DNA from: Streptomyces cadmiisoli
GTDB lineage: Bacteria; Actinomycetota; Actinomycetes; Streptomycetales; Streptomycetaceae
Direction of reading: 5' to 3'
Assembly (NCBI RefSeq): GCF_003261055.1
Contig: NZ_CP030073.1
Location: forward strand, 1,054,001 to 1,118,000
Length of the DNA stretch: 64,000 bases
Every line of letters starts with the position of its first letter. Positions within the stretch are counted from its first letter, which is position 1. Made by a program: the position numbers and the translations under genes. The notes under the pieces were generated by a model that was not told the DNA's origin, searched no databases, and saw only the letters and a program-made list of their open reading frames with translations. This document shows positions 48,145 through 62,857 of this stretch, piece by piece.

Positions 48145-48621
48145 TCAGGACGCGACGTTGCGCAGCGCCACGGCGAGCTTCTGGAGGTCCAGGCCGACCA
48201 GATGGTCGAGGAAGTTGCGGCGTACGGAGGCCAGGTTGGTCGGCCAGGCCTCCTCCAGACGGTCGAAGCCGGCTTCGGTCAGGATGGCGTTCCAGCCACG
48301 TGCGTCCTGTTCGGACCTGACCCGCTCGATGAGTCCCTGGCTCTCCAACCGGATCGCCAAACGCGTCATACCACTGAGCGACATCTCGACCGCCGCGGCC
48401 AGATCGCCCATACGCAGCTGCCGGTCCGGTGCCTCGGAGAGGTTCATCAGCGCCAGGTACTCCACGAGGGACAGCTGCTGCTCCCGGAGCATGTCGGCAT
48501 CGATGGCGCGCGGCAGGGCGTAGACGACACGACTGAGCGAGCGAACCACTGCTTCTTCGTCCGGGGTGAGAGGTTGCAGCCGCCGCTCAGTGGGATCCGG
48601 CTGCCGTGCGGCGCGTGACAT
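48145..48621 (-). CDS. MarR-family regulator (paralogue A)
   Basis: 158 residues: LTPDEEAVVRSLSRVVYALPRAIDADMLREQQLSLVEYLALMNLSEAPDRQLRMGDLAAAVEMSLSGMTRLAIRLESQGLIERVR. About half identical to the MarR at 49783 and similar to the one at 6136. ATG 48621 stands 6 nt behind TAACAT, so the message is probably leaderless, and a dyad TTACT-N6-AGTAA (48631-48646) overlaps that -10. Downstream neighbour of the FMN reductase. Confidence 0.92.
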   Translation of the reverse strand: MSRAARQPDPTERRLQPLTPDEEAVVRSLSRVVYALPRAIDADMLREQQLSLVEYLALMNLSEAPDRQLRMGDLAAAVEMSLSGMTRLAIRLESQGLIERVRSEQDARGWNAILTEAGFDRLEEAWPTNLASVRRNFLDHLVGLDLQKLAVALRNVAS

Positions 48622-48630
48622 GGCTGCATG

Positions 48631-48646
48631 TTACTTGCCTGAGTAA
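48631..48646 (-). promoter_or_regulatory. MarR paralogue A operator
   Basis: TTACTTGCCTGAGTAA, with perfect 5-bp arms overlapping the -10 (TAACAT on the minus strand). The 300-bp gap to 48953 otherwise shows no gene. Confidence 0.65.
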
Positions 48647-48953
48647 AGAATCTGCCAGGACGTGCCGGAAAGGGGTGGGAGCCGACGGTCGAGCGCATGA
48701 CTCGACGCCAGCATACGAGCTGCACTTACGTCACACGTGTGTGAAACACACCCACCCAGCTCACCACTCCCACCCCGGGACGGACACACCGAACCGGTGG
48801 ACCCCGACGGCGTCACCACCACCGGGGTCCACCGGTCATACCCCCACCGTCACCTACCACCGCCTGCCGCTGCCGCACTCTTCCCCGTCGGCGGCCGCAG
48901 GCGACGAAGCGCTGGGCGACGGCGCTCTGCAACCGTGTTTCCGTGTGTACTGG

Positions 48954-49514
48954 TTACGCGGCGCGCAGCGGGGCGAGGGCCGCACTCCAGGCCCGCACCT
49001 GGTCCAGCGTGGTGTTCAGGGCCTCGACCTGGAAGTCGCCGGGCTTGAACTCGCTGAAGTTCTCGAAGTCGTTGAACAGCGACAGCGCGACCTGGGAACG
49101 GACGTCGGCCATCTGGAGTTCGGCCGCGACCAGGCGCAGGTGCTCCACGGCACGCGCTCCGCCCAGGGAGCCGTAGCTCACGAAGCCGACCGCCTTGTTG
49201 TTCCACTCCGCGTAGAGGAAGTCGATCGCGTTCTTCAGCACGCCGGACGTCGAGTGGTTGTACTCGGGCGTGACCATGATGAAGCCGTCGAACGAGTCGA
49301 TCTTGCGGGCCCACTCCAGGGTGTGCGGCTGGGCGTACTGCCCCATCGACGGCGGGACCATCTCGTCGAGGTGCGGAAGCTTGTAGTCCAGCAGGTCGAC
49401 CAGCTCGAACTCCGCATCGGTGCGCTGCGAGGCGATGCCGTAGACCCAGCGGGCCACGGCCTCGCCGTTACGCCCGGGACGGGTGCTGCCGAGGATGATG
49501 CCGATCTTGATCAT
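48954..49514 (-). CDS. NADPH-dependent FMN reductase
   Basis: 186 residues, flavodoxin-like: IGIILGSTRPGRNGEAVARWV (phosphate loop GSTRPGRNG), FIMVTPEYNHSTSGVLKNAIDFLY and VGFVSYGSLGGARAVEHLR. Reduces FMN, quinones or azo compounds with NADPH. Two dyads overlap its promoter, and MarR genes lie on both sides, suggesting induction by quinone or electrophile stress. Confidence 0.94.
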   Translation of the reverse strand: MIKIGIILGSTRPGRNGEAVARWVYGIASQRTDAEFELVDLLDYKLPHLDEMVPPSMGQYAQPHTLEWARKIDSFDGFIMVTPEYNHSTSGVLKNAIDFLYAEWNNKAVGFVSYGSLGGARAVEHLRLVAAELQMADVRSQVALSLFNDFENFSEFKPGDFQVEALNTTLDQVRAWSAALAPLRAA

Positions 49515-49562
49515 GGCTAACCCCTTCACGAAGGTGCCCCGGAGTGACGCCCGGGGATATAC

Positions 49563-49609
49563 TTGCTTCGACAAGCAACCTAAGGGGAAGTGATTGCTTC
49601 GTCAAATAA
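49563..49609 (-). promoter_or_regulatory. promoter of FMN reductase with two MarR-type dyads
   Basis: Minus strand TTGACG (49600-49605), 17 bp, TAGGTT (49577-49582). TTGCTTCGACAAGCAA (49563-49578) touches the -10, and TTGCTTCGTCAAATAA (49594-49609) covers the -35. The layout is the same as at the rhamnose operon promoter. Confidence 0.85.
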
Positions 49610-49782
49610 GTACCCGGAGGGAACGGTTCGACGTGACCAGGACCACATCCCGATGCACCCCGCCGACAACCGGCTCTCGGCATCAGGACGGCTGATGCCT
49701 CGCGGGAGCCGGAGGGCGGAGCGCACCGCCAGGTGCTCCGGCCGCTCCCAGTCCCGACCGCACAGATGAGGTGATGTCTTCC

Positions 49783-50256
49783 ATGGCACAGAGACCCGCA
49801 CCGGGCGCAGCAGCGGAACCGGTGCGACCACTGACCGCGGACGAAGAGGCCGTCGTCCGATGCCTTCCGTTCCTCATCTACGCCCTGCCGCGCGCCATCG
49901 ACGCCGACCTGACCCGTGAGCAGCAGATGTCCACCACGGAGTATCTGGTTCTGATGCACCTGTCCGAAGCGCCGAACCGTCAACTGCACATGGGCGACCT
50001 GGCGGACGCCTGCGAGATGTCACTCAGCGGCACGACCCGGATCGTGCATCGGATGGAGCGTGCGGAGTTCGTCAAGCGGTCGCGGTGCGGCCAGGACGGC
50101 CGCGGCTGGCACGCCACGCTCACCGACGCCGGCCTCGCCCGTTTGGAGGAGGCCTGGCCGACCAACGTGGCCGCCGTGCGCCGCCACTTCCTCGACCATC
50201 TGACCGACCTGGATCTCAAGCAGCTCGCCGCGGCCCTGCAGAAGGTCGCGACCTGA
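49783..50256 (+). CDS. MarR-family regulator (paralogue B)
   Basis: 157 residues: LTADEEAVVRCLPFLIYALPRAIDADLTREQQMSTTEYLVLMHLSEAPNRQLHMGDLADACEMSLSGTTRIVHRMERAEFVKRSRCGQDGRGW. ATG 49783 has GAGGTG upstream; ATG 49774 would be too close to that site. Divergent from the FMN reductase, whose promoter carries twin dyads, so it is the likely repressor there. Confidence 0.9.
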   Translation: MAQRPAPGAAAEPVRPLTADEEAVVRCLPFLIYALPRAIDADLTREQQMSTTEYLVLMHLSEAPNRQLHMGDLADACEMSLSGTTRIVHRMERAEFVKRSRCGQDGRGWHATLTDAGLARLEEAWPTNVAAVRRHFLDHLTDLDLKQLAAALQKVAT

Positions 50257-50324
50257 GCCGTGCGCACATCGAGCGCTCGACCGCTCGCACAGCACCCACC
50301 GTCGGCCTGCGGTCACCTGGGTGA

Positions 50325-50897
50325 TCAGCGCAGCAGCACACCGAAGACGACCGTGAAGAACGATTCGAAGGCCCGGGGCGAACGGTCGGCTCGGGCCGAG
50401 ATCAAGGCGCCCTCCCACGCGCTCAGCACGAAGCGCGCCAAGGTGGACGCCTCCAAGGTCTTCGACACCTCACCCGCCCGCTGGGCATCGGCGACGGCGA
50501 CGGCCAGCGCCTCGGTCCACGCCTCCAGACCGCCCCGCGTCGCGGCGCGCAGCGCGTCGCTGTGGTCGGCCACCTCGACAGCGAGGTCACCCACGAGGCA
50601 GCCACCCTGGAATTCCGCCCGGATGTTCTCGTCGCGCAGGAACTCGAAGTGCTCGCGCAGCCGGGTCAGCGGCGCGACCGAGGTGTCGCGCAGGGTCTCC
50701 AGCCGCCGGGTGATGCCGTACCTTTCCAGGGCTACGACGGCCAGAGCCTCCTTGCTCTGGAAGTGGTTGTAGAAGGAACCCTTCGGAGCGCCGGCGGCGT
50801 CGGTGATGTCCTTCACACCCGTCGCCGCGTAGCCGCGGGCGTGGAACTGCTCGACCGCCGCGGCGATGAGGTTCTCTCGCAGACTGGCTCTGGGCAC
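50325..50897 (-). CDS. TetR-family regulator
   Basis: 190 residues. HTH: NLIAAAVEQFHARGYAATGVKDITDAAGAPKGSFYNHFQSKEALAVVAL, the AcuR/YxaF-like GSFYNHF form. GTG 50897 follows CAGGAGG by 7 nt. Two matching operators (51010-51025 and 51145-51160) lie in the divergent region, one over its own likely promoter and one over that of the next gene. Confidence 0.93.
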   Translation of the reverse strand: MPRASLRENLIAAAVEQFHARGYAATGVKDITDAAGAPKGSFYNHFQSKEALAVVALERYGITRRLETLRDTSVAPLTRLREHFEFLRDENIRAEFQGGCLVGDLAVEVADHSDALRAATRGGLEAWTEALAVAVADAQRAGEVSKTLEASTLARFVLSAWEGALISARADRSPRAFESFFTVVFGVLLR

Positions 50898-51009
50898 CGA
50901 AGGACCTCCTGCCGTACAAGGTGGGCGATCACCTTACATCCGCCGTTCGCCCGTCGAACTGCCTGAGCTGCCGCTCTGCCGTCCAAGCTGCCCCCCTCGC
51001 CGAGAGTAC

Positions 51010-51160
51010 AAGACGAGCGGTCATTTTGAAGAGCTCGCCAGGGCTAAGCCGTCCGCCGCCGACTCGAGACCGTCTCTCCCCTCAACTCCTGGGGAAACCC
51101 GGACCCGGTGAGCGGGTACGCGCCTGGGTCGGTTTGCCTCGACTAAGACGACCGGTCATT
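51010..51160. promoter_or_regulatory. divergent promoters each with a TetR operator
   Basis: AAGACGAGCGGTCATT (51010-51025) and AAGACGACCGGTCATT (51145-51160) differ at one base. The second fills the spacer between TTGCCT (51134-51139) and CATTAT (51157-51162) on the + strand. The first lies between TTCAAA and TACTCT on the minus strand. Confidence 0.8.
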
Positions 51161-51233
51161 ATCGGGCTGCGGCACCAGCTCGCCTGGCACCCCCGTCACG
51201 GGGGAGGAACACTCTCAAGCAGGAGGAATCGTC

Positions 51234-51953
51234 ATGACTGATCTCACGGCCCAGGTCATCCGGGCGCACGGCGGCCTTGACCGCTTTCAGCAGTACGAGA
51301 CCGCAACGGTGGACTTCCGGTCCGGCGGAGGACTGTGGCCGCTGAAGGGCCAGGCGGGGATCTTCGATCGCGCCACGGTCCGGGTCGACCTCCATCGGCA
51401 GCACGCCAGTCACTACCCCTTCACCGCTCCGGGTCTGCGTACCTCCTTCACCGCCGAGCGCGTGGCCGTGGAGAACGACCGCGGCGAGGTGCAGTCCGAG
51501 CGCCTGGCGCCGCGGGACGCCTTCAAGGGGCACACCGTCGAGACACCCTGGGACGACCTGCACGTCGCCTACTTCGCGGGCTACGCGATGTGGACGTACC
51601 TGACCTCCCCCTTCACCTTTGTCTCCCCCGGATTCCGGACCGAGGAGCTGTCTCCCGTCACCGAGGCGGGCGAGACGTGGAGCCGGCTCAAGGTCACCTT
51701 CCCCGAGGAGATCGCCACCCACTGCCGTGAGCAGGTCTTCTACTTCGGCGAGGACGGATTGCTGCGCAGGCACGACTACACCGCGGAGGTCATCAACGGT
51801 GGGCCGGCCGCGCATTACACCTACGACCACGCGGAGTTCGGCGGAATCATGGTTCCGACCAGGCGACGGGTCCACCCGCTGGGGGAGGACGGGGCAGTGG
51901 TCCGCGACATCGAGCTCGTCACCATCGACATCGAGAACGTCGACTTCGCCTGA
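51234..51953 (+). CDS. conserved hypothetical protein under TetR control
   Basis: 239 residues, soluble, no signal peptide. Mostly beta-rich: ATVDFRSGGGLWPLKGQAGIFDRATVRVDLHRQHASHYPF, WSRLKVTFPEEIATHCREQVFYFGEDGLLRRHDYTAEV, YTYDHAEFGGIMVPTRRRVHPL. The overall pattern suggests a lipoprotein-sorting-like (LolA-type) half barrel that may hold a lipophilic molecule; this is a guess from the fold pattern. AGGAGGAATCGTC precedes the ATG. Confidence 0.7.
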   Translation: MTDLTAQVIRAHGGLDRFQQYETATVDFRSGGGLWPLKGQAGIFDRATVRVDLHRQHASHYPFTAPGLRTSFTAERVAVENDRGEVQSERLAPRDAFKGHTVETPWDDLHVAYFAGYAMWTYLTSPFTFVSPGFRTEELSPVTEAGETWSRLKVTFPEEIATHCREQVFYFGEDGLLRRHDYTAEVINGGPAAHYTYDHAEFGGIMVPTRRRVHPLGEDGAVVRDIELVTIDIENVDFA

Positions 51954-51978
51954 CGCCGACAGCCGTCCGCCGCCTGCT

Positions 51979-52048
51979 GTCTGCCGTCTGCCGTCTGCCG
52001 TCTGCCGTCTGCCGTCTGCCGTCTGCCGTCTGCCGTCTGCCGTCTGCC
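51979..52048. repeat. ten exact copies of the heptamer GTCTGCC
   Basis: A head-to-tail array of 7-bp units, 70 bp long, starting 25 bp after a stop codon. Partial copies (CGCCTGCT) precede it. Such arrays change length by slippage. Apart from it, 51954-52316 shows nothing I can defend. Confidence 0.95.
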
Positions 52049-52316
52049 GATCGGGCGGCTTCGTGGTGCCGGCCGGGGCCGAGCGGAGATACGGCCGCCG
52101 CGGCACGAGGGAGACGCACGGGCGGCCGTACCGGGCCCGCCCCGGCCGGTGATCGTGTCACCGACTCCGCCAGGGAAAGGCTCCTCAGAGTTCGCCGGAC
52201 GGGACAGTCGGGTCCGAAAATGCGGTGAACGTGATCGGCTCTGACAAAACACGGTGTGGGGCGGCGGGCGTGCGTTAAGAGTGAGGGTCGTTGGACGGCC
52301 ACCACTGGAGACACGT

Positions 52317-52645: not shown

Positions 52646-53548
52646 GTGCAGGAAGCGCCCTTCGGAGCGGATCGGCCGACGCGTCGCCTGTTCTTCGTCG
52701 GTGGTGTGCACGGCCGGACGGGGACCAGCGTGGTCAAGCGGCTGCTGTGCGCCCATCCGCAGGTGAGTGCCGTGAGCGGTGGTGAGACCCGGATGCTGGA
52801 GGCCGTCAGTGAGGTCTGGCCGATGCTCGATCCCGACCTCGGATACACGCCGGGCACGGCGAGCACCGCTCTCGCGGAGTTCGCACAGCACGTACGCGAG
52901 ACCCTGGGGGACACGCCCGAGGTGCAGGCGGCGCTGACCGGCTTGTCGGCCGATCTCGGCGCCGGCTCCGTGCGGCTTGTCGGCAGGCCTCGGCTGCCGC
53001 TTCCGCCACCGACGTCTTCCGGCGACCTCGTGCGGTCCTTCGGCCGGTTCGTCACGGATGTGTTCGCGGCCTGCGCACTGGATCCGGCGCGCCCGTACCT
53101 GTGCGAGAAGACACCGAGCAACGCGCAGTACATACGCCGGCTGCGTCTGCTGTTTCCCGATGCCCGGGTCGTGGTCATGGTGCGTCACCCGGTCCATGTC
53201 GCGCTGTCCCACACGCGTCGCGACTGGGGCCCGCCGGACCCCGTGGAAGCGGCCCACTACACAGCCGCATACTTCCGTTCGTGGCGGGAGGCCTTCTCGG
53301 AGGATTCCGCCGTTCTGCTCGTGCGGCACGAGCGTCTGGTGTCCGAGCCCGGGCAAGTCCTCGAAGAGGTGCGCGCGTTCCTCGGCCTGACCGCCGACGC
53401 GGACTGGCTGAAGTGGGCCGGCGGCGCGATCAGGTCGTCCCAGGACCGCACCGCGTCACTGCCCGAGTCCGGACTCGCGGACATGCACACGGCCCTCGCC
53501 CTGGAACTGGAGCAGCACGGCTACCGCACCCGGACGGAGTCCTCGTGA
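52646..53548 (+). CDS. sulfotransferase (PAPS-dependent)
   Basis: 300 residues. 5'-phosphosulfate loop FFVGGVHGRTGTSVVKRLL (residues about 16-34) and 3'-phosphate site RVVVMVRHPVHVALSHTRRDWG (Arg180, Ser188) are those of the sulfotransferase_3 family. Transfers sulfate from PAPS to a hydroxyl or amine of an unknown acceptor. GTG 52646 has GGAGG 8 nt upstream; a GTG at 52631 overlaps that site. First gene of a seven-gene coupled operon: its stop overlaps the next start as GTGA. Confidence 0.88.
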   Translation: MQEAPFGADRPTRRLFFVGGVHGRTGTSVVKRLLCAHPQVSAVSGGETRMLEAVSEVWPMLDPDLGYTPGTASTALAEFAQHVRETLGDTPEVQAALTGLSADLGAGSVRLVGRPRLPLPPPTSSGDLVRSFGRFVTDVFAACALDPARPYLCEKTPSNAQYIRRLRLLFPDARVVVMVRHPVHVALSHTRRDWGPPDPVEAAHYTAAYFRSWREAFSEDSAVLLVRHERLVSEPGQVLEEVRAFLGLTADADWLKWAGGAIRSSQDRTASLPESGLADMHTALALELEQHGYRTRTESS

Positions 53549-53745
53549 CCGGCGGCAGTCGCTCACGGAGCGAACGCCTGCCGAGGAACCGGCCGGTTGT
53601 CCCGGACCGAGCCGACGTGACGCCGGTGCCGGACGCCCTCCCGGAGCGCCGCCGTCTCGGCGAGGCCGGTCCTGCGTCGCGCCGGTCACGGACCGCCGGG
53701 CGCGGAGGACCGGGAACCGGGCTCGTGGCCGAGGCGGCAGCGTGA
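53545..53745 (+). CDS. 66-aa basic protein bridging two operon genes
   Basis: Starts at the GTGA overlap with the sulfotransferase stop and ends at the GTGA overlap with the next gene, so it exactly fills the gap between them. Product TGGSRSRSERLPRNRPVV... is Arg/Pro-rich and ends GTGLVAEAAA. No domain recognised. The double overlap is the evidence that it is translated; the sequence itself is not informative. Confidence 0.55.
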   Translation: MTGGSRSRSERLPRNRPVVPDRADVTPVPDALPERRRLGEAGPASRRSRTAGRGGPGTGLVAEAAA

Positions 53746-54707
53746 GCGGCCGGGCCGACGCATGGGTGCGCAACCCGCCGTGTGATCGGCTTCTTGAACG
53801 GGTGGACTCCGGCGGCGGTGTCGCCTTCGCCAAGCGGACGCACGGTGTCTGGGATCACCTGAGCCTGCTGAGCACCGGCGGCTGGGAGGCCGACGGCTGG
53901 CGCCGCTGCGACCAGATGATCTTCAAAGGGGCTGCCGCGCCGACGCCCGCCGTCACACATGAACGCCAGGCCTATCTCGCCTACTTGCGGGAGATCCTGG
54001 ACGACGTGGTCCATCCGCCGGCCGACCCTCGGTGGATCCAGACGATCAGCCTGGACCTGGACTATCTGACCGGCAAGCTGCGCAAACCGGCCTTCGCGCT
54101 GCGCGCCGGTGTGGATCCCCGTCTGCTCAGCTATTGGCAGTGGGAGTACTCCTACAGCGAGCTGCTCCAGCGTTTCGAACTCGGCGACCGGCCCTTCCAG
54201 TTCGCACAGACCCTCACGAGCGGCCTGGTCACACTCAGCCTGCTCGACCTGCCGCGGATCGCGCGCGACCGTCACGTGATCGTCGTGGCACCGGAGAAGA
54301 TGAGGGATCTCGACGAACGCTGGAGCCTCGAACCCGAACACTTCACGTTCCTGCCCGCGCCCAGGTGGCCGGACCGGCGGCCGAACGGCTCGCTTTTCAG
54401 CGACCCCGTCCTGCCCGCGCTGCGTACCTACGCGATCCGTCATCGACTGCTCGGGGACCTCCGGTCCGTCGCGTCCACACGTCCTCGGTTGTACCTGTTC
54501 GAACTGGGCACGTGCGCCCAGTGGCTCATCGCTCGGCTGTTTCGCGCCCAGCCCGGTGACTCGTACCTGGACATGGGGCGATGTCTCGAGGCCTGGTATC
54601 CCGACACGCCGTGGCCCTTGAAGGCACCGGTGACAGCGGTGTACCGGCGCGCCGCGCGTGCCTACTACGGACAGGCGCGCTACCTCGCGCTGCGGGCACG
54701 ACTGTGA
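53742..54707 (+). CDS. unrecognised protein of the sulfotransferase operon
   Basis: 321 residues, soluble, no signal peptide. I do not recognise the family. Notable stretches: VDSGGGVAFAKRTHGVWDHL near the N-terminus, LDLDYLTGKLRKPAFALRAGVDPRLLSYWQWEYSYSELL in the middle, and LYLFELGTCAQWLIARLFRAQPGDSYLDMGRCLEAWYP near the end. The last recalls the nucleotide-sugar end of GT-D (DUF1792) glycosyltransferases, only weakly. GTG start and TGA stop both overlap neighbours by 4 bp. Confidence 0.8.
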   Translation: MSGRADAWVRNPPCDRLLERVDSGGGVAFAKRTHGVWDHLSLLSTGGWEADGWRRCDQMIFKGAAAPTPAVTHERQAYLAYLREILDDVVHPPADPRWIQTISLDLDYLTGKLRKPAFALRAGVDPRLLSYWQWEYSYSELLQRFELGDRPFQFAQTLTSGLVTLSLLDLPRIARDRHVIVVAPEKMRDLDERWSLEPEHFTFLPAPRWPDRRPNGSLFSDPVLPALRTYAIRHRLLGDLRSVASTRPRLYLFELGTCAQWLIARLFRAQPGDSYLDMGRCLEAWYPDTPWPLKAPVTAVYRRAARAYYGQARYLALRARL

Positions 54708-55756
54708 CGGCGCCGCGCACCGTGGTCCTCACCAGTGCCGCGGGCGGTGTCGGCACGGCGGTTCAGCAGGCGGCCGAAGTCAGCGCGCACGCCTACACCG
54801 TCATCGGGCTGAGCTCCGAGCCGGCTCACCTGCTCTCCGGTGCTCCCGCACTGGCCTGTCCGCCGACCCGGGACCGGGTCCGTTTCTCGGAGCGGGTTCT
54901 CGCACTCGTCGAACGGGCCGGCCCCTGTCTGGTGGTGCCGGGCCGGGACGAGGACGCCGTCGTGCTGTGCGAACGGGCCGCCGAACTCGCCCCCTTGGGC
55001 GCATCGCTCACCTCCGGGCCGGGACCGGCCGTGCGGCAGGCCTACGACAAGGCGCTGACTCCCGCTCTCCTGGCCGGCTCGGCGCTGTCCATGGCCCGGA
55101 CGGCGGCCACGCTGCCCGACGCCCTCGCTGTCGCCGAACAGGTGGGCTACCCGCTGTTGATCAAACCGCGTCGCGGGAACGCATCGCGCGGTGTGCGGCT
55201 GGCCCACGGGAGCGGCGAACTGCGCAGGCTGTTCGTCCCCATGCAGGATGTCGCACAGGAGTTGCTGCCTCTCGTGGCCGACGACCGCCGCCCCTGGGAC
55301 CATCACGGGGACGAACGGGCTCAGGTGGGCGAGTACTCCCTTCAGTTCCTGATCGGTCCCGCGGGCGACGACCTGGGATGCTTCGCCTCCCGCAACAACC
55401 TGTCCGGCGGAACACCCCGCCTGGTGGAGGTCGTCGACGCGAGGACACTCGGCATCGGCACCCGCGCCCACGAGGCCCTCACCCGCAGCGGGGCCTGGGG
55501 AGCCTGGAACCTCCAGGGCCGCCTCGCCCCGTGCGGAACCCTCCGGTTCTTCGAGATCAACGCACGGCCGACGGGGCTGACCGGTCTGCGCGCACGGCTC
55601 GGGTTCAACGAACTGGACCGCCTCTACGAGGCCTGCGTACTGCGCCGACTGCCGCCACCGGCCCGGCCGCCCGTGCCGGGCCAGGTCATCGACGTCTCCG
55701 GCCCGCAGGGCGACGCAGGGCCGGTTCTCCGCCGACGAGGGGAGGAGGCCTCATGA
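54704..55756 (+). CDS. ATP-grasp ligase
   Basis: 350 residues. The N-terminal pre-grasp domain starts VVLTSAAGGVGTAVQQAAEV, like carbamoyl-phosphate-synthase-type ATP-grasp proteins. ATP-binding Lys in GYPLLIKPRRGNASRGVRL (about 148-165), and metal-binding FFEINARPTGLTGLRARLGFNELD near the end (E-x-N-x-R-P). Such enzymes join a carboxylate (as acyl phosphate) to an amine. It is the only bond-forming ligase in the operon, so it probably builds the backbone amide of the product. Confidence 0.9.
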   Translation: MTAPRTVVLTSAAGGVGTAVQQAAEVSAHAYTVIGLSSEPAHLLSGAPALACPPTRDRVRFSERVLALVERAGPCLVVPGRDEDAVVLCERAAELAPLGASLTSGPGPAVRQAYDKALTPALLAGSALSMARTAATLPDALAVAEQVGYPLLIKPRRGNASRGVRLAHGSGELRRLFVPMQDVAQELLPLVADDRRPWDHHGDERAQVGEYSLQFLIGPAGDDLGCFASRNNLSGGTPRLVEVVDARTLGIGTRAHEALTRSGAWGAWNLQGRLAPCGTLRFFEINARPTGLTGLRARLGFNELDRLYEACVLRRLPPPARPPVPGQVIDVSGPQGDAGPVLRRRGEEAS

Positions 55757-56574
55757 GTGTGGCGGTGACGGGCTGCCAGGGGTATCTCGGCAGCGCGGTG
55801 GTGGAGCATCTGCGACACGGGGGCACGGCATGCCGGTCCGGTCTCGGCAGACTCCAGGAGTTACGGCCCGGTTCCGTCGACAGCCGTGCCGTCATCCACT
55901 GCGCGGGCGCGCTGCGGTCCCGGCCCGCTCCGGAGATCTGGCACGCCAACGTCGTCTGTCTGACGCCGCTGCTCCGCGCGATCGACCCTGACTGCGTCGT
56001 GGTCCTCGCCTCCTCCCGTGCCGCCGCCGCTCCGCCGAACGAACAGGACCTCTACGGGCGCAGCAAGAACGCCGCCGAGCAGATCGCCGACCAGCACCCC
56101 GGACCGGTGCGCATCGTTCGCCTGACGGTTCTGGCGGGCCCCTCTCCCGCGGGCCTGGGAGATTCCTTCGTCAGCCGGATGACGGACGCGGCGCTGCGCA
56201 CGGGAGCGATCCGGATCCCCGCGGACGAGCGCACCGTCGACTTCCTGGACGTCCGTGAGGCGGCCGCTGTCATGGCCGGGCTCACGGACCCGGCGCGGCC
56301 GTGGCCGGACGCAGAACCCGTGGACGCCACGTCCGGCCCACTGGAACTGACGGCGGTCGCCCGTGCAACGGCCGAGGCGGTGCAGGAAGCGACCGGGCGC
56401 CGCGTCCGCGTCGTACGGACCGGGCTGCCGGCCGGCAGCCGACAGCCGCCGGCCGATCCGACCCGGTGGGCGCGGCTGCGGACCGCCGCCGGGGTGACAC
56501 CCCGCGCGCCGCTTTCCACCATCCGTGACACCGTCCGCGCACGTGTGCGCGCTGGGGAGCTGAGCACACTGTGA
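55753..56574 (+). CDS. NAD-dependent epimerase/dehydratase (extended SDR)
   Basis: 273 residues. VAVTGCQGYLGSAVVEHLRHGG NAD motif, VVVLASSRAAAAPPNEQDLYGRSKNAAEQ with YxxxK active site, DFLDVREAAAVMAGL. Short relative to sugar epimerases (about 310-340). It may modify a sugar nucleotide or reduce an intermediate. ATGA overlap with the ligase gene and GTGA overlap with the next gene. Confidence 0.88.
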   Translation: MSVAVTGCQGYLGSAVVEHLRHGGTACRSGLGRLQELRPGSVDSRAVIHCAGALRSRPAPEIWHANVVCLTPLLRAIDPDCVVVLASSRAAAAPPNEQDLYGRSKNAAEQIADQHPGPVRIVRLTVLAGPSPAGLGDSFVSRMTDAALRTGAIRIPADERTVDFLDVREAAAVMAGLTDPARPWPDAEPVDATSGPLELTAVARATAEAVQEATGRRVRVVRTGLPAGSRQPPADPTRWARLRTAAGVTPRAPLSTIRDTVRARVRAGELSTL

Positions 56575-57404
56575 CCGAACCCGCACAGGTCATCTTCGTC
56601 GCCGCCGGACCGGGACGGTCGGGAGCCGACTCCACCCTCACCGCCTTGAGCGCCCACCCCTTCGTGACCACGGCGCCGGTGTGGAACGTCGCGATGACTG
56701 CGGCTGTGAACCGCCTGCTGGCGCACGCCCCGAACGACGACCACAACTGGCTGCCGCGGCGCGCCGCCCAAGCCCTGACCGACGTGATCGCCAGGCTCGA
56801 CACGGGATCCGCCGCGGACCGCGCGGCGGCCTCCGATCTCCTCAGCCGCACGCGGGCGCGCTCCGTCACGATCCCCGTGTACGGCAGGCTGTGGGTGCCC
56901 GACCCGCTGCCCCGCCGTCACTGGCAGCGGCTGATCAGGGAGACCATGCTGCTGACGGCTTCCGGCGGATCGCATCTGGCGGTGAAGATCGGCCCTCATG
57001 TGTCCCGTCTGGTGGCCGGTGTCCTGGGCCCCGAGGACTGTCTGCTGTTCGCCGTCCGCCATCCGGTGGAGACAGCCGTGCAGTTGGCCGCGTCGCGGGT
57101 CGACGGAATGCGTCCGGACGAGGCCGTGCACTATGTGGACGTCGCTCTGCGCCATGCCCGCCATGTGCTCACCGGACTGGACACGAGGGTCGACCCGGTC
57201 CGGCTGGAGGAGTTGGTGCACTCCCCCGAATCCACCCTCGCCCGAGTGGAGGAGATCACCCGCCTCCCCCGCGTCGCCTGGCCGCCGCACGTGTTCGAAG
57301 CCCTTCCCCACGACGTCGGTCGCGCTCCGGATCTCGACCACCCGCTCGCTCGGGCACACGGTGCGGATCTGACAGCCCTCGCGTCGCAGTGGGGGTACGC
57401 GTGA
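56571..57404 (+). CDS. second sulfotransferase-like protein, divergent P-loop
   Basis: 277 residues. Same layout as the first sulfotransferase: VIFVAAGPGRSGADSTLTALSAHP at the N-terminus and LLFAVRHPVETAVQLAASRVDGM (Arg163, Ser175) for the 3'-phosphate. The PAPS loop is altered (GPGRSGADST instead of GxxRxGTxxL), so activity is less certain. It may sulfate a second position or a different acceptor. Confidence 0.75.
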   Translation: MTEPAQVIFVAAGPGRSGADSTLTALSAHPFVTTAPVWNVAMTAAVNRLLAHAPNDDHNWLPRRAAQALTDVIARLDTGSAADRAAASDLLSRTRARSVTIPVYGRLWVPDPLPRRHWQRLIRETMLLTASGGSHLAVKIGPHVSRLVAGVLGPEDCLLFAVRHPVETAVQLAASRVDGMRPDEAVHYVDVALRHARHVLTGLDTRVDPVRLEELVHSPESTLARVEEITRLPRVAWPPHVFEALPHDVGRAPDLDHPLARAHGADLTALASQWGYA

Positions 57405-58177
57405 ACGGCCTTCCACGGCTCGCGCCACGGGAATTCGGCGACGTCACGCGTTGGTCGTCGCTGCTGCGCCGGTACGGGCTGGCCGTCGCGCCGGCCTGGG
57501 TGACGGGCGGCCGACTCGACCTGCTCCTCGAAGAACACCGACGGGCTTTCGCGTCCGCCGTACCCCGGGACACGACCGCGGCGCGGATGCCCGACGCACA
57601 GACCGGGCAAGGGGTCGGCGAAGTCGCCTATCGTCCCGGGCTGTCCTCCCGGGCCCTGCGCCTCACCACGGCGGCCGCCGATGCCTTTCCGGCGACTCAG
57701 TCGTTTCTGAGGCACTCGACACTGGCCGCGGTGGCGGCCGCTCATCTCGGCGAGGACGCCTCGGTCAACCGGTTCGCGTATCTGACGTACGACGTCGCGC
57801 ACGACACCCCGGTCACACAGTTGCACTACGACCGCAAGCACGCCCTGAAGGCCTATGTGTGCCTGACTCCGGCGCTTCCCGAGTTCGGAGCCCCGGCTTT
57901 CGTACCCGGCTCGCACGATCGCTGCCGGAAAATCCGTGAAGCGCATCTGGCGGCCGGCGTTCCCCAGGACCGGTTGCCCATCACACACGGGCATCACGGT
58001 CACACACCACAGAGTGTGACCGGCCCGGCCGGAACACTGGTCCTCTTCGACACCGACTGCCTTCATCAGGGCGGCACCGTCTCCGCGGGCAACACGCGTC
58101 GTGTCCTGCGCGGCCATTCGCATCCGGCGCCGCGCACCCGCCCGGACGCACCGGACTCTCAGGACCGCTCGCAATAG
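57401..58177 (+). CDS. phytanoyl-CoA dioxygenase-like (PhyH) Fe(II)/2OG oxygenase
   Basis: 258 residues. Iron triad His142-x-Asp144 (QLHYDRKH) and His222 (CLHQGG), with Arg233/234 as candidate 2-oxoglutarate anchor. ALKAYVCLTPALPEFGAPAFVPGSH is the typical PhyH core. Probably hydroxylates the operon product, perhaps making the hydroxyl that is sulfated. Last gene of the operon; GTG start overlaps the previous stop. Confidence 0.88.
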   Translation: MNGLPRLAPREFGDVTRWSSLLRRYGLAVAPAWVTGGRLDLLLEEHRRAFASAVPRDTTAARMPDAQTGQGVGEVAYRPGLSSRALRLTTAAADAFPATQSFLRHSTLAAVAAAHLGEDASVNRFAYLTYDVAHDTPVTQLHYDRKHALKAYVCLTPALPEFGAPAFVPGSHDRCRKIREAHLAAGVPQDRLPITHGHHGHTPQSVTGPAGTLVLFDTDCLHQGGTVSAGNTRRVLRGHSHPAPRTRPDAPDSQDRSQ

Positions 58178-58373
58178 ACACCTCACTCCCCGATGCGGGC
58201 GCCCGCGCTCGACGGCACCCGGTCGTGGTGCCTGCCCGGCGGGCGGCGCCGTGCCCGATGGCGTTTGCGCGGTCACCACCACCAGGAAAGAATCGGGAGA
58301 AAACGGACTCATGGCCTCGGGAGAGGGCCCTGCGCCGAAAGGCCGGGCACCATCCCGGTGGAGGTGGTCGGGC

Positions 58374-59729
58374 GTGCGGCATTACGATCTTGTGCTCCTC
58401 GGGGCGGGCAGCGGCAACATGGTGCTCACCGCGGAACTCGCCCATCTGCGCACCGCCATCGTCGAACCCGACCGCTTCGGCGGCACGTGCCTGAACCGGG
58501 GCTGCATTCCGAGCAAGATGTTCGTCGTCACCGCCGACGCGGCCGAGGGTGCGCGGGAGGCGGCACGGCTCGGTGTCCACGCCGGCGTCGAGCGCGTCGA
58601 CTGGAAGGCCATCCGCGACAGGATCTTCCACCGCATCGACCCACTGCACGACAGCGCGGTCGACTACCGCAGGGCGAACGGGATCGACGTGTTCACGGAA
58701 CCGGGCAGATTCATCGCCCCGAAGGTGGTGCTCGCCGGATCCGAGGAGATCACCGCCGACACGTTCGTGGTGTCCGTCGGCTCACGGCCCACGGTGCCCG
58801 ACATCCCCGGACTCGACGGCGTGCCGTACCACACCTCCGACACCGTCATGCGGATCGACGATCTGCCCGCGTCCATGGCCGTCATCGGCGGCGGTTTCAT
58901 CGCCGCCGAGTTCGGCCATGTGTTCAGCTCGTTCGGTACGGATCTCACGATCGTGCAGCGCGGGCCCCGTCTGCTGATGGCGGAGGACGAACAGGTGTCG
59001 GCGCGGTTCACCGAACTCGTGTCGCGCAGACATCGCGTGCTCCTCGACGCCGCCGTCACCTCAGTCGAACGGCGTGCCGACGGGGTGGCGCTCACCGTGA
59101 CCTGCCCGGGCGGCGACCAGGTCGTGGAGGCGGAGACGCTGCTGGTGTGCGTCGGCCGCCGGCCCAACACCGACCGTCTCGACGCGGCCGCCGGCGGACT
59201 GGCGCTCGACGAGCACGGCCACATCGTGACCGACGACGCCTACCGGACGTCGGTGCCGGGAGTGTGGGCGCTGGGCGACGCGGTGAACCACTTCCAGCTC
59301 AAGCACATGGCGAACGCCGAGTCGCGGGTCGTGCAGCACAACCTGCTCCACCCGCAGGACGTGAAGACCCTGTCGAACCGGGTCGCGCCGCACGCGGTCT
59401 TCACCAGCCCGCAGATCGCCAGTGTCGGACTGACCGAGCAGGAGGCGCGCCGGCGGAAGATCGAGTACCTGGTGAGCGTGCGTGACTACGCGGACGCCGC
59501 GTACGGATGGGCCCTGGAGGACACCACCAGCTTCGTGAAGGTCCTGGCGAATCCGGTCGACCGCACCATCCTGGGCGCGCACATCATCGGGCCGCAGGCC
59601 GCGACCCTCATCCAGCCGCTGATCCAGGCGATGTCACTGGGTCAGACAGCGGACCAGGTCGCCCGGGACGTGCTGTACATCCACCCCGCGCTGACGGAGG
59701 CCGTCGAACAGGCCCTGCTGGACCTGTAG
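58374..59729 (+). CDS. mtr: mycothione reductase
   Basis: 451 residues, class I flavoprotein disulfide reductase. LVLLGAGSGNMVLTAELAHL, redox-active pair in GGTCLNRGCIPSKMFV, VIGGGFIAAEFGHVFSSFG, C-terminal HPALTEAVEQALL with the His-Glu base. Reduces mycothiol disulfide with NADPH, the actinobacterial counterpart of glutathione reductase. GTG 58374 (VRHYDLV) matches known Mtr N-termini and has GGAGGTGG upstream; ATG 58311 with GGGAG is the alternative. Confidence 0.93.
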   Translation: MRHYDLVLLGAGSGNMVLTAELAHLRTAIVEPDRFGGTCLNRGCIPSKMFVVTADAAEGAREAARLGVHAGVERVDWKAIRDRIFHRIDPLHDSAVDYRRANGIDVFTEPGRFIAPKVVLAGSEEITADTFVVSVGSRPTVPDIPGLDGVPYHTSDTVMRIDDLPASMAVIGGGFIAAEFGHVFSSFGTDLTIVQRGPRLLMAEDEQVSARFTELVSRRHRVLLDAAVTSVERRADGVALTVTCPGGDQVVEAETLLVCVGRRPNTDRLDAAAGGLALDEHGHIVTDDAYRTSVPGVWALGDAVNHFQLKHMANAESRVVQHNLLHPQDVKTLSNRVAPHAVFTSPQIASVGLTEQEARRRKIEYLVSVRDYADAAYGWALEDTTSFVKVLANPVDRTILGAHIIGPQAATLIQPLIQAMSLGQTADQVARDVLYIHPALTEAVEQALLDL

Positions 59730-59737
59730 AGGCAGCG

Positions 59738-60211
59738 TCAGTGCGCGGAGACGTTGGCCGTCAGACGCTCCAGCACGGCCTTGGCCTCCCGCGTCTCACG
59801 ATCGCTGAGGTCCGCGGCGCGCGCGATGGCCGCCGGGACGGCGCGGGCGCGCTCACGCAGCTCGACACCCTCCTCGGTGAGGGTGATCTGCACGGAGCGC
59901 TCGTCGTCGACCTGGCGCTCACGCCGGATGAGGCCGTTGGCCTGGAGGCGCTTCAGCAGTGGCGTCAGTGTGCCGTAGTCCAGCTGGAGGAGGGTGCCGA
60001 GGGTCTTGATGGGGAGGGCACCGCGCTCCCACAGGACCAGCATCACCAGGTACTGGGGGTAGGTCAGGTTGATCTCCTCCAGCAGCGGTCGATAGCGGCT
60101 GGTCAACGCCCGCTGCGCCGCGTAGAGCGCGAAGCACAACTGGTCCTCGAGGAGCATGCTCACCTCATCGGCGCCGTCGGACTGCTCCACGCTCTTGTCG
60201 ACCTCGCTCAT
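59738..60211 (-). CDS. ohrR: OhrR-type MarR regulator
   Basis: 157 residues. Reactive Cys26 in LEDQLCFALYAAQRALT, the signature of peroxide-sensing OhrR; winged helix LGTLLQLDYGTLTPLLKRLQANGLIRRERQVDDERSVQITLT. Organic hydroperoxide oxidises the Cys and frees the DNA. No ohr peroxidase gene is adjacent; instead mycothione reductase converges with it and a VOC gene is divergent. GGAGCGG precedes ATG 60211. Confidence 0.95.
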   Translation of the reverse strand: MSEVDKSVEQSDGADEVSMLLEDQLCFALYAAQRALTSRYRPLLEEINLTYPQYLVMLVLWERGALPIKTLGTLLQLDYGTLTPLLKRLQANGLIRRERQVDDERSVQITLTEEGVELRERARAVPAAIARAADLSDRETREAKAVLERLTANVSAH

Positions 60212-60243
60212 GACCGCTCCTCTCCTGTCCTGCTTCCGGTGTC

Positions 60244-60443
60244 CCCCAAGCCTACCCCGCAAGCTCCCATGACGCAATTAGATTGCGCGCAGCTAAAGCG
60301 CGAACACGGCCCAATCACCCTCGACACAGAGGCCTCGCCCATCCCGACCTCGACATCTACCTGCACAAATGCCCCAAAGATACCTATGTCACACTTACCT
60401 TTGGCCCGTTTTCCTTGCGCGCAAGTTAAGTGGACGGTAGGTT
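60244..60443. promoter_or_regulatory. divergent promoters with TTGCGCGCAA-type dyads
   Basis: + strand: TTGCGC (60415-60420), 17 bp, TAGGTT (60438-60443); the palindrome CTTGCGCGCAAG (60414-60425) covers the -35. Minus strand toward ohrR: TTGCGT, 17 bp, TAGGCT (ending near 60251), with TTGCGCGCAG at 60283-60292 upstream. The two related dyads are probably OhrR sites. Nothing else is seen in 60293-60413. Confidence 0.75.
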
Positions 60444-60632
60444 TCCTGTCAGGTTGGGCCGCACGGAAGGGCCGATGCCTCGGCAATCTCCGCCGTCCGC
60501 CGCAGCAGCCGGGGGGCACGAGTCGCCCCGGCTGCGACCAACCGACACACCCCCCCAACAGGAACCGGGTGACGCACAGGGTGCGGACATGGACCGCCCC
60601 GCTCACCCATACCGAGAAATGAGGACACTCCC

Positions 60633-61106
60633 ATGAAGCTGAAGCTCGAAATGATCGTGCTGCCCGTCTCCGACGTCGACCGCGCCAAGAACTTCTACGA
60701 CGCGCTGGGATTCCGCCTGGACGTCGACTACACCGCCAACAGCGAGTTCCGAGTCGTGCACTTCACGCCGTCCGGCTCCGAGTGCTCGATCATCTTCGGT
60801 GAGGGCATGACCCCCCTCGCCCCCGGCTCCATCCAGGGGCTGTACCTCATCGTCGACGACATCGAGGAGGCGCGCGCCGACCTCGTGAGCCGCGGCATCG
60901 AGGTCAGCGAGATCTTCCACGACGCCAACGGGCTCCTGTACCACGGCCATGAGGGCGGGGACGTCACCCACCCCCTCGCGGACCAGGAGCGGCGGGCCGG
61001 CCTGCACCCCGAACGCGCCTCCTACGGCTCGTACGTCACCTTCAGCGACCCGGACGGCAACGGCTGGGTGATCCAGGAGGTCAAGCAGCGCCTGGCCGGC
61101 CGCTGA
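60633..61106 (+). CDS. glyoxalase/VOC-superfamily protein
   Basis: 157 residues, paired beta-alpha-beta-beta-beta modules: MIVLPVSDVDRAKNFYDALGFRLDVDY and YGSYVTFSDPDGNGWVIQEVKQRL. Candidate metal ligands include His in VVHF and Glu in VIQEV. May detoxify an electrophile or oxidised lipid product, fitting control by the divergent OhrR. GAGGACACTCCC precedes the ATG. Confidence 0.9.
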   Translation: MKLKLEMIVLPVSDVDRAKNFYDALGFRLDVDYTANSEFRVVHFTPSGSECSIIFGEGMTPLAPGSIQGLYLIVDDIEEARADLVSRGIEVSEIFHDANGLLYHGHEGGDVTHPLADQERRAGLHPERASYGSYVTFSDPDGNGWVIQEVKQRLAGR

Positions 61107-61134
61107 CCCCCGCACCGAACCCGCCCGAGGGGCT

Positions 61135-61160
61135 GCAACGGGCCGTGTCCGGCCCGTTGC
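61135..61160. terminator. terminator behind the VOC gene
   Basis: GCAACGGGCC (61135-61144) and GGCCCGTTGC (61151-61160), a perfect 10-bp stem with loop GTGTCC, 28 bp after the stop codon. Confidence 0.85.
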
Positions 61161-61354
61161 CCGGAGGGACGGTCCCCTCCCCCGTCCATCCCTCGGCCAT
61201 CCCCGCGACCCGCGCGGTGCGACGGCTCCCGAGCCGTCCACCGGCGGGGAACAGCGCCGCGTGCGCACCGGCAGGGGCCCGTCCGGGCAGTGGCCCGGGC
61301 CGCAGCAGCAATGAGCAACGTGTAACGAGCAACGAACCCGTGAGGAATTCAGCA

Positions 61355-62857
61355 GTGAGCAACGCAGCAGTGATGAACGAGTCCGCCCGCATCTACGACG
61401 TGATCGTGATCGGCGGTGGCCCGGTCGGCGAGAACGTGGCCGAACGCGCCCGCGCGGCGGGACTGAGCGCCGTGATCGTGGAACGCGAACTCCTCGGCGG
61501 AGAGTGCTCGTTCTGGGCCTGCGACCCCAGCAAAGCCCTGCTGCGACCGGTCGTGGCCCGCGCCGACGCAAGCCGAATACCCGGCCTCGACCCGGCCGTC
61601 GCCGGCCCCCTCGACGTCGACGCGGTCCTCGCCCACCGCGACAAAATGTCCTCCTACTGGAAGGACGAGGACCAGGTCGACTGGCTCGACTCCGTCTCCG
61701 TCGACCTCGTCCGCGGCCACGGCCGCCTCACCGGCCCCAAGCAAGTAGCCGTACAGACCCCCGAAGGCGACACCGTCGCACTGACCGCCCGCCACGCCGT
61801 CGCCGTCTCCACCGGCACCCGCGCAGCCCTGCCCCCCATCCCCGGACTCGACACCGTCCGCCCCTGGACCAGCCGCGAAGCCACCAGCGCCGACAAGGTC
61901 CCCGGCCGCCTCGCCGTCGTCGGCGGCGGCGTCGTCGCCGTCGAGATGGCCACCGCCTGGCAGGCCCTCGGCTCCCAGGTCACCATGCTCGTCCTCGAGA
62001 ACAGCCTCCTGGAGCGCATGGAACCCTTCGCCGGCGAACTCGTCGCCGACGGACTGCGCGAAGCAGGCGTCGACATCCGCTTCAACACCACCGTCTCCTC
62101 CCTGACCCGCGACAACAACGCACACAGCGCACACAGCGCAAACAGCGCGAACGGCGAGAGCGGCGCGAGCGGCGAGATACGGATCACCCTGTCCGACGGC
62201 GGACAGCTCACCGCCGACGAGATCCTCCTCGCCACCGGCCGCGCCCCCCAGACCCGCGACCTCGGCCTGGAAACCGTCGGCCTGACACCCGGCGACTGGC
62301 TCACCGTCGACGACACCTTCCAGGTCACCGCCATCGACGGCGGCTGGCTCTACGCCGTCGGCGACGTCAACCGCCGCGCCCTGATGACCCACCAGGGCAA
62401 ATACCAGGCCCGCATCGCCGGCGCCGCCATCGGCGCCCGCGCCAACCGACAGCCCCTCGACACCACCCCCTGGGGCACCCACGTCGCCACCGCCGACCAC
62501 ACCGCCGTCCCCCAGGTCGTCTTCACCACCCCCGAAGTCGCCGCCGTCGGCCTGACCAGCCGCGAAGCCGAACACAGCGGACGCCCCATCAAGACCGTCG
62601 ACTACAACCTCGCCCACGTCGCCGGCGCCCACCAGTACGGCGAGGACTACCGCGGCCACGCCCGCATGCTCGTCGACACCGACCGCAACACCGTCGTCGG
62701 CATCACCTTCGCCGGCCCCGGCGTCGGCGAACTCGTCCACTCCGCCACCATCGCCGTCGCCGGCGAAGTCCCCCTCGACCGCCTCTGGCACGCCGTCCCC
62801 GCCTTCCCCACCCTCGGCGAAATCTGGCTGCGCCTGCTGGAGACCTACCGCGGCTGA
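61355..62857 (+). CDS. class I pyridine nucleotide-disulfide oxidoreductase
   Basis: About 500 residues. VIVIGGGPVGENVAERARAAG FAD motif; redox Cys pair in GGECSFWACDPSKALLRP (C-x4-C); NAD(P) motif VVGGGVVAVEMATAWQALG; YAVGDVNRRALMTHQGKYQAR; C-terminal HAVPAFPTLGEIW. Related to mercuric/dihydrolipoamide reductases, substrate unknown. A low-complexity loop (NNAHSAHSANSANGESGASG) interrupts the NAD domain. GTG 61355 with GAGGA upstream is chosen; ATG 61373 is the alternative. No gene or strong signal is seen in 62858-63075. Confidence 0.88.
   Translation: MSNAAVMNESARIYDVIVIGGGPVGENVAERARAAGLSAVIVERELLGGECSFWACDPSKALLRPVVARADASRIPGLDPAVAGPLDVDAVLAHRDKMSSYWKDEDQVDWLDSVSVDLVRGHGRLTGPKQVAVQTPEGDTVALTARHAVAVSTGTRAALPPIPGLDTVRPWTSREATSADKVPGRLAVVGGGVVAVEMATAWQALGSQVTMLVLENSLLERMEPFAGELVADGLREAGVDIRFNTTVSSLTRDNNAHSAHSANSANGESGASGEIRITLSDGGQLTADEILLATGRAPQTRDLGLETVGLTPGDWLTVDDTFQVTAIDGGWLYAVGDVNRRALMTHQGKYQARIAGAAIGARANRQPLDTTPWGTHVATADHTAVPQVVFTTPEVAAVGLTSREAEHSGRPIKTVDYNLAHVAGAHQYGEDYRGHARMLVDTDRNTVVGITFAGPGVGELVHSATIAVAGEVPLDRLWHAVPAFPTLGEIWLRLLETYRG
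62114..62178. repeat. imperfect in-frame 9-bp repeats coding AHS/ANS units
   Basis: Repeats of CACACAGCG, CAAACAGCG and related nonamers inside the flavoprotein gene. They code for a flexible loop rich in Asn, Ala, Ser and His. Similar AGCAACG units recur around the start of the same gene (61313-61363). Confidence 0.7.

What the first reader, a model, noticed from the sequence alone, without database searches (positions are those of the whole stretch)
52646..58177. Seven-gene, fully overlap-coupled operon with two sulfotransferases, ATP-grasp ligase, epimerase and PhyH oxygenase
Seen: every gene boundary from 53545 to 57404 is a 4-bp GTGA or ATGA overlap, so all seven proteins are probably made in step. 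Known: sulfotransferases need PAPS, ATP-grasp enzymes join acids to amines, and PhyH enzymes hydroxylate. Inferred: together they could build, hydroxylate and twice sulfate an amide-type small molecule without any PKS or NRPS. I do not recognise the combination, and one member (53742-54707) belongs to no family I know. This is the best candidate for an undescribed system.
Basis: partly seen in the sequence, partly recalled or inferred. Interest (0 to 1): 0.82.

Follow-up and report, generated by a model that had tools for sequence, protein, structure and literature searches.

The report
Sulfated amino-sugar operon with gene relic
A rare soil-bacterium operon, conserved in the same gene order in two other genomes, probably makes a sulfated, amide-bearing sugar; in this strain one of its seven genes, an aminotransferase, has shrunk to a dead stub, and its 'unknown' gene encodes a protein with an uncommon glycosyltransferase fold.

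The parts
52646..53548 (+). SulT1: PAPS-dependent sulfotransferase (Sulfotransfer_3)
   Evidence: Pfam 81.7 bits; orthologues L002:7990-8892 and L003:1200-2141 at the same place; dN/dS 0.26 against S. albogriseolus
53545..53745 (+). Relic of a DegT/DnrJ/EryC1 (DesI-like) sugar aminotransferase: about 57 N-terminal codons plus about 9 C-terminal codons; 305 codons fewer than in S. albogriseolus, the PLP-lysine region among them
   Evidence: Alignment to L002:8889-10004; 18/56 identities against a maximum of 15 in 20000 shuffles; dN/dS 1.05 over 57 codons, 0.89 over all 66; 12 of 31 invariant residues kept
53742..54707 (+). GT-D-like glycosyltransferase, divergent family (the 'unknown' protein)
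54704..55756 (+). ATP-grasp ligase (PRK12767-like)
   Evidence: Pfam 25.6 bits, cut-off 19.8; NCBIfam PRK12767.1-1 88.3 bits, below its cut-off 218; FEIN-R motif in three of three loci
55753..56574 (+). Extended SDR (NAD-dependent epimerase/reductase-like), GxxGxxG and YxxxK present
   Evidence: Pfam Epimerase 36.4 bits; alignment
56571..57404 (+). SulT2: divergent sulfotransferase-like protein
   Evidence: Sulfotransfer_3 18.1 bits, below cut-off 27; orthologue L003:5961-6824 scores 44.4, above cut-off, L002 orthologue has no match at E <= 0.001; GPGRSG, K139 and RHP conserved in 3 of 3
57401..58177 (+). PhyH-type Fe(II)/2-oxoglutarate oxygenase, HxD...H present
   Evidence: Pfam 37.8 bits, cut-off 22; LHYD ... 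LHQGG in the translation; orthologues 44.1 and 41.2 bits

Best explanation
The operon is a sugar-tailoring pathway. In intact relatives a DesI-like aminotransferase makes a nucleotide-linked 4-amino-4,6-dideoxy sugar; the ATP-grasp ligase joins a carboxylic or amino acid to that amine; the SDR adjusts a sugar stereocentre or keto group; the GT-D-like enzyme transfers the sugar to an acceptor; two PAPS-dependent sulfotransferases and the PhyH oxygenase decorate it. In this strain the operon's own aminotransferase was lost, probably long ago, by an in-frame internal deletion, yet the other six genes stayed intact and constrained, so the pathway most likely still runs, either with amino sugar from another cluster (a DesI-like enzyme is encoded at G000:C1:3,281,501) or on a changed substrate. 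Shown: gene order, relic, GT-D fold match of the model, overall constraint. Inferred: every chemical step, their order, the substrate, the acceptor, and that constraint persisted after the loss.
Against: The DesI-like proteins score below the equivalog cut-off (201-282 bits in six proteins against 650; the own-genome one 464), so the 4-amino-6-deoxy sugar is not certain. The GT-D-like family lacks the Asp-X-Glu motif and a Pfam match, and Foldseek gave no match at E <= 0.001, so its activity could differ. SulT2 is below the Pfam cut-off here and its model failed (pLDDT 48.5). Pairwise dN/dS mixes time before and after the loss, so the operon could have begun to fail. One of three intact relatives (P0042) supports the relic only weakly (14/56; 6 of 20000 shuffles reach it). 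No exporter is in the operon. Supply from the other cluster is a guess.
Confidence: 0.5

Rival explanations
1. The operon in this strain is dying: after the aminotransferase was lost the pathway is dead and the six genes are on their way to decay.
For: The relic is neutral; pairwise dN/dS cannot date constraint after the loss; the best aminotransferase homologue elsewhere in the genome is only 38% identical.
Against: The six other frames are open with their motifs; GT-D keeps 188 of 197 residues invariant in three relatives; no rate acceleration against outgroups. The relic's excess divergence is about that of the whole window branch, so decay should already show (inference).
Confidence: 0.25
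2. One reading: a free amide-type small molecule, hydroxylated and sulfated twice, without a sugar.
For: ATP-grasp, PhyH and sulfotransferase are all small-molecule tailoring types; some DegT relatives in the PDB list act on non-nucleotide substrates, such as 2-deoxy-scyllo-inosose and AHBA synthase.
Against: The best DegT matches are nucleotide-sugar 4-aminotransferases; the unknown protein has a glycosyltransferase fold.
Confidence: 0.15
3. The enzymes modify a cell-surface or secreted polymer (glycan or glycoprotein), as the viosamine island does for flagellin, not a diffusible metabolite. This is a sub-reading of the best explanation, differing in the acceptor.
For: No exporter gene in the operon; the characterised GT-D enzyme dGT1 glycosylates a surface protein (PMC5063993, passages read).
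Against: No polymerase, flippase or acceptor-protein gene recognised among the flank ORFs scanned (10 in the window; 4 in L002 and 4 in L003); several of those ORFs had no Pfam match, and the flanks were scanned only in part.
Confidence: 0.3

Closest known systems
GT-D glycosyltransferases (DUF1792/PF08759; dGT1 of Streptococcus parasanguinis; PDB 4pfx, 4phr, 5v4a)
   Different: 12-14% identity; no PF08759 match; no Asp-X-Glu motif, which PMC6493773 (passages read) describes as conserved and Mn-binding; a free-standing protein in a sulfation operon
DesI (dTDP-4-keto-6-deoxyglucose 4-aminotransferase; PDB 2po3, identity with DesI recalled) and DegT kin
   Same: Intact relatives of the relic: 2po3 is the best PDB match, PLP_DesI the best NCBIfam model
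   Different: Below the equivalog cut-off; in this window only a remnant is left
Viosamine island of Pseudomonas syringae (vioA, vioM, vioT, vioS, vioB, vioR, acp)
   Same: Logic: 4-aminotransferase, N-acylation of the 4-amine, hydroxylated acyl group, glycosyl transfer (PMC3927599, passages read)
   Different: That island acylates through VioB with ACP-type enzymes and has a 1173-aa transferase; here ATP-grasp and a GT-D-like enzyme, plus two sulfotransferases and PhyH
Anthrose operon of Bacillus (recalled, no call; the search found no paper)
   Same: 4-amino-4,6-dideoxyglucose with a hydroxyacyl amide (recalled)
   Different: No sulfotransferase, ATP-grasp or GT-D (recalled)

Membership tests
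GT-D glycosyltransferase (DUF1792) | GT-D fold | tested here: met
GT-D glycosyltransferase (DUF1792) | PF08759 sequence profile above cut-off | tested here: not met
   PF08759 not reported for P0003 or any of the 18 family members scanned
GT-D glycosyltransferase (DUF1792) | Conserved Asp-X-Glu metal motif | tested here: not met
   No D-x-E column at 60% in A1 (18 rows) and none in P0003; the only D-x-D column is 105/107
GT-D glycosyltransferase (DUF1792) | Sugar transfer from a nucleotide sugar | not testable with these tools
   needs an assay
DesI-type 4-aminotransferase (intact relatives) | TIGR04427 equivalog cut-off 650 bits | tested here: not met
   201-282 bits in 6 of 6 proteins scanned, though best NCBIfam model in each
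DesI-type 4-aminotransferase (intact relatives) | DegT family with PLP lysine | tested here: met
   PF01041 274.7 (L002) and 289.3 bits (L003); SFHATK, Lys191, in L002; which lysine binds PLP is recalled
DesI-type 4-aminotransferase (window copy) | Intact catalytic domain | tested here: not met
   66-aa remnant without the lysine region
Sulfotransferase (SulT1) | Sulfotransfer_3 above cut-off | tested here: met
   81.7 bits, cut-off 27
Sulfotransferase (SulT2) | Sulfotransfer_3 above cut-off, or fold | tested here: inconclusive
   18.1 bits in window; none in L002, 44.4 in L003; only PDB match at E <= 1 is CurM sulfotransferase, E 0.11; model unusable
Viosamine island | Acyl-carrier-protein route and VioB acyltransferase | tested here: not met
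   Pfam and NCBIfam scans of the operon's products show no ACP or acyltransferase; ATP-grasp instead
Viosamine island | 4-aminotransferase gene of its own | tested here: not met
   relic in the window; intact in L002 and L003

The most novel reading that the evidence does not exclude
An undescribed, horizontally spread biosynthetic system built round a new GT-D-like glycosyltransferase family without the known metal motif, making a sulfated, N-acylated amino-sugar glycoside; in this lineage the system has outlived its own aminotransferase by drawing amino sugar from a separate, perhaps indole-type, gene cluster, or by switching to a sugar without the amine.
Probability: 0.3. Interest if true: 0.7.

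Novelty: new variant of a known kind. Interest (0 to 1): 0.52.

Why it matters
GT-D is a minor glycosyltransferase fold; the characterised member whose paper I could look into acts on a streptococcal adhesin. A second branch, not recognisable by sequence, in a conserved sulfation operon of actinomycetes would widen that fold's known chemistry and point to a new class of sulfated amino-sugar products. The relic also makes a clear prediction: strains with and without the aminotransferase should make different products or depend on a second cluster.

Tried and rejected
Orf2 as a real small protein: rejected (dN/dS 0.89-1.05; codon-position G+C pattern lost: 0.82/0.73/0.79 against 0.73/0.52/0.78 in the intact gene). 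Assembly artefact for the deletion: rejected, since the retained N-terminal part has diverged (33% protein identity) far beyond its neighbours (68-80%).

Foldseek alone gave no significant PDB match for the unknown protein; only the second-look aligner showed GT-D. Sequence profile against the PDB: 0 matches. PF08759 in genomes: 0 of 41 and 0 of 246, but the controls were silent too, so this says nothing on absence. Plasmid collection: no match by DNA or protein. Viral contigs: 8 stretches matched a pattern, 0 confirmed. SulT2 model unusable. None of the operon proteins reached an NCBIfam cut-off among the matches shown. The ARAGORN tRNA-Asp inside the SDR gene has no Rfam support at gathering scores and is taken as spurious. 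Two slips of mine: the downstream Pyr_redox query was cut in a wrong frame, so I repeated the flank test with ten flank proteins in their frames (no match in L002 or L003); the L002 PhyH row was in a wrong frame and is replaced by 13662-14411. One search also read no locus and was repeated.

Literature (listings only unless said otherwise): sulfotransferase + ATP-grasp + aminotransferase + phytanoyl-CoA + glycosyltransferase + Streptomyces, at least 5 of 6 terms (one paper, on lanthipeptides); sulfotransferase + ATP-grasp + aminotransferase + glycosyltransferase + gene cluster (same paper); viosamine + ATP-grasp; Qui4N + ATP-grasp; PhyH + sulfotransferase + ATP-grasp; GT-D + glycosyltransferase + Streptomyces (one review); anthrose + aminotransferase + biosynthesis operon; DUF1792 + glycosyltransferase (10 papers, passages of two read); Streptomyces cadmiisoli (7 papers, none opened); viosamine + flagellin + vioA + glycosyltransferase (one paper, passages read). 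The library lacks most subscription journals; the original GT-D paper was not held.
Full report
Observation. Six 4-bp overlaps join SulT1, a 66-aa ORF, the 321-aa unknown protein, an ATP-grasp protein, an SDR, a second sulfotransferase-like protein and a PhyH oxygenase. Pfam places SulT1, the ATP-grasp protein, SDR and PhyH above cut-off, SulT2 below it, and finds nothing for the 66-aa and 321-aa products. The window lies at G000:C1:1,054,001-1,118,000 of a 10.2-Mb genome. An ATP-grasp protein of Streptomyces cadmiisoli is 98% identical to the window's, so the strain is probably near that species.

Conservation. A protein search with the unknown protein listed 20 proteins at E <= 0.001, one of them the window's own or a near-identical copy, among 7999 scored candidates (a capped set) from 5.8 billion sequences. 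In genome samples it is rare: 1 of 392 (genus), 1 of 396 (phylum) and 1 of 394 (class) genomes, always the window's own; the draws overlap, and at most five first-look candidates per genome were scored in the rows shown. The scan of genome contigs confirmed two loci out of 8 pattern matches: S. albogriseolus JCM 4616 (L002) and a Pseudomonadota MAG (L003). In both, SulT1, GT-D-like, ATP-grasp, SDR, SulT2 and PhyH lie in the window's order on one strand (67-81% and 31-53% identity); in L002 five of six junctions are again 4-bp overlaps and in L003 the first three are. L003 rests on a binned contig, so the cross-phylum claim is provisional. None of ten flank proteins of the window is found in the stretches held for L002 or L003, which fits an island; those stretches are short (about 8 kb before and 2 kb after in L002, 1.2 and 6.7 kb in L003). 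Taking equal 'longest contig' lengths as the same contig, GT-D, ATP-grasp and DegT homologues share a contig in 3 cases (515531, 9718062 = Saccharothrix Mg75, 22709) and two of the three do in 5 more (4262, 135072 = S. arenae, 36998 = NPDC058694, 4344, 6518). Of the 20 GT-D-like clusters, five share a contig length in this way; L002 and L003 add two by sequence; for the rest this could not be judged.

The relic. Both other loci carry a DegT/DnrJ/EryC1 aminotransferase (371 and 366 aa; 274.7 and 289.3 bits) exactly where the window has the 66-aa ORF. The ORF aligns without gaps to the first 57 residues of the S. albogriseolus protein and to its last residues. N-terminal identity is 18 of 56, against at most 15 in 20000 shuffles, and 6 of the last 9 residues match; against the NPDC058694 protein it is 20 of 56 (shuffle maximum 14) and 8 of 9. 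Against a third relative, P0042, it is weaker, 14 of 56, reached by 6 of 20000 shuffles. Intact relatives share 36-40 of 56 with each other; of 31 residues invariant in three of them the relic keeps 12. Its dN/dS against S. albogriseolus is 1.05 over the 57 N-terminal codons and 0.89 over all 66, while the six other genes have 0.26, 0.13, 0.29, 0.28, 0.23 and 0.24. Its dN over the 57 codons (0.67) exceeds that of the other genes (0.13-0.25) by about half the pairwise dS (0.8-1.0), that is, about one branch: the loss looks old (inference from a short stretch). The window's proteins are not faster than those of S. albogriseolus when measured to other relatives: the window protein is the closer one in 8 of 15 GT-D comparisons (15 of the 18 further relatives; the short or partial P0017, P0018 and P0027 were left out), 3 of 7 ATP-grasp comparisons with one tie (the five nearest of 12 left out), and 4 of 6 genes against L003. 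These comparisons are not independent. So the rest of the operon seems to have stayed functional after the loss (inference).

Chemistry. The intact DegT's best solved relative is 2po3 (E 5e-63, next 1.4e-42; recalled as DesI), and PLP_DesI is its best NCBIfam model, below the equivalog cut-off. Hence the favoured route: nucleotide-linked 4-amino-4,6-dideoxy sugar, amide formation by ATP-grasp, transfer by the GT-D-like enzyme, sulfation and hydroxylation. A natural fusion of SulT1 and DegT (P0055, 637 aa) ties sulfation to the amino sugar. In the window genome the DegT homologues found lie at C1:3,281,501 (38% identity to the S. albogriseolus protein), 3,288,401 (33%) and, in part, 2,828,742; the first is DesI-like (464 bits, cut-off 650; 2po3 E 1.5e-112) and sits in a cluster with VioC-like and other FAD enzymes, a sugar O-methyltransferase and a glycosyltransferase (ten of the cluster's ORFs scanned, most matches below model cut-offs), so it might supply the amino sugar. 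That is untested.

Comparison. The nearest described logic I found is the viosamine island of Pseudomonas syringae (PMC3927599, passages read), which uses an ACP-based acyl route; no sulfation gene is in its seven-gene list. The operon here differs in acylation enzyme, transferase fold and sulfation. It looks undescribed within the searches listed under Tried and rejected.

Verdict. A real, conserved, rare operon, most likely for sugar tailoring, with a GT-D-like family new to sequence models, lacking its aminotransferase in this strain; the product is unknown.

Noticed in passing
51962-52049: Tandem array of a 7-bp unit GCCGTCT, 12.6 copies, 93% matches, about 600 bp upstream of the operon.
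   Followed up: no
56395-56476 (-): ARAGORN calls a tRNA-Asp antisense within the SDR gene; Rfam lists nothing at gathering scores in the window; probably spurious.
   Followed up: partly
L008 (G000:C1:3272000-3291900): Second gene cluster in the same genome with two DegT aminotransferases, VioC-like, BagK/FevA-like and weakly halogenase-like FAD enzymes, a sugar O-methyltransferase and a glycosyltransferase: perhaps a glycosylated indole-type product.
   Followed up: partly
P0055 (metagenome protein, 637 aa): Natural fusion of Sulfotransfer_3 and DegT domains, the first two genes of the intact operon.
   Followed up: partly
L003:210-1199 and L003:7509-7973: The Pseudomonadota locus adds a weakly aminotransferase-V-like ORF before SulT1 and a glyoxalase-family gene overlapping the end of PhyH.
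   Followed up: no
48145-51953 and 58101-62857: Flanks hold three MarR and one TetR regulators, an FMN reductase, two Pyr_redox proteins and a glyoxalase-type protein; none of ten flank proteins is found in L002 or L003.
   Followed up: partly
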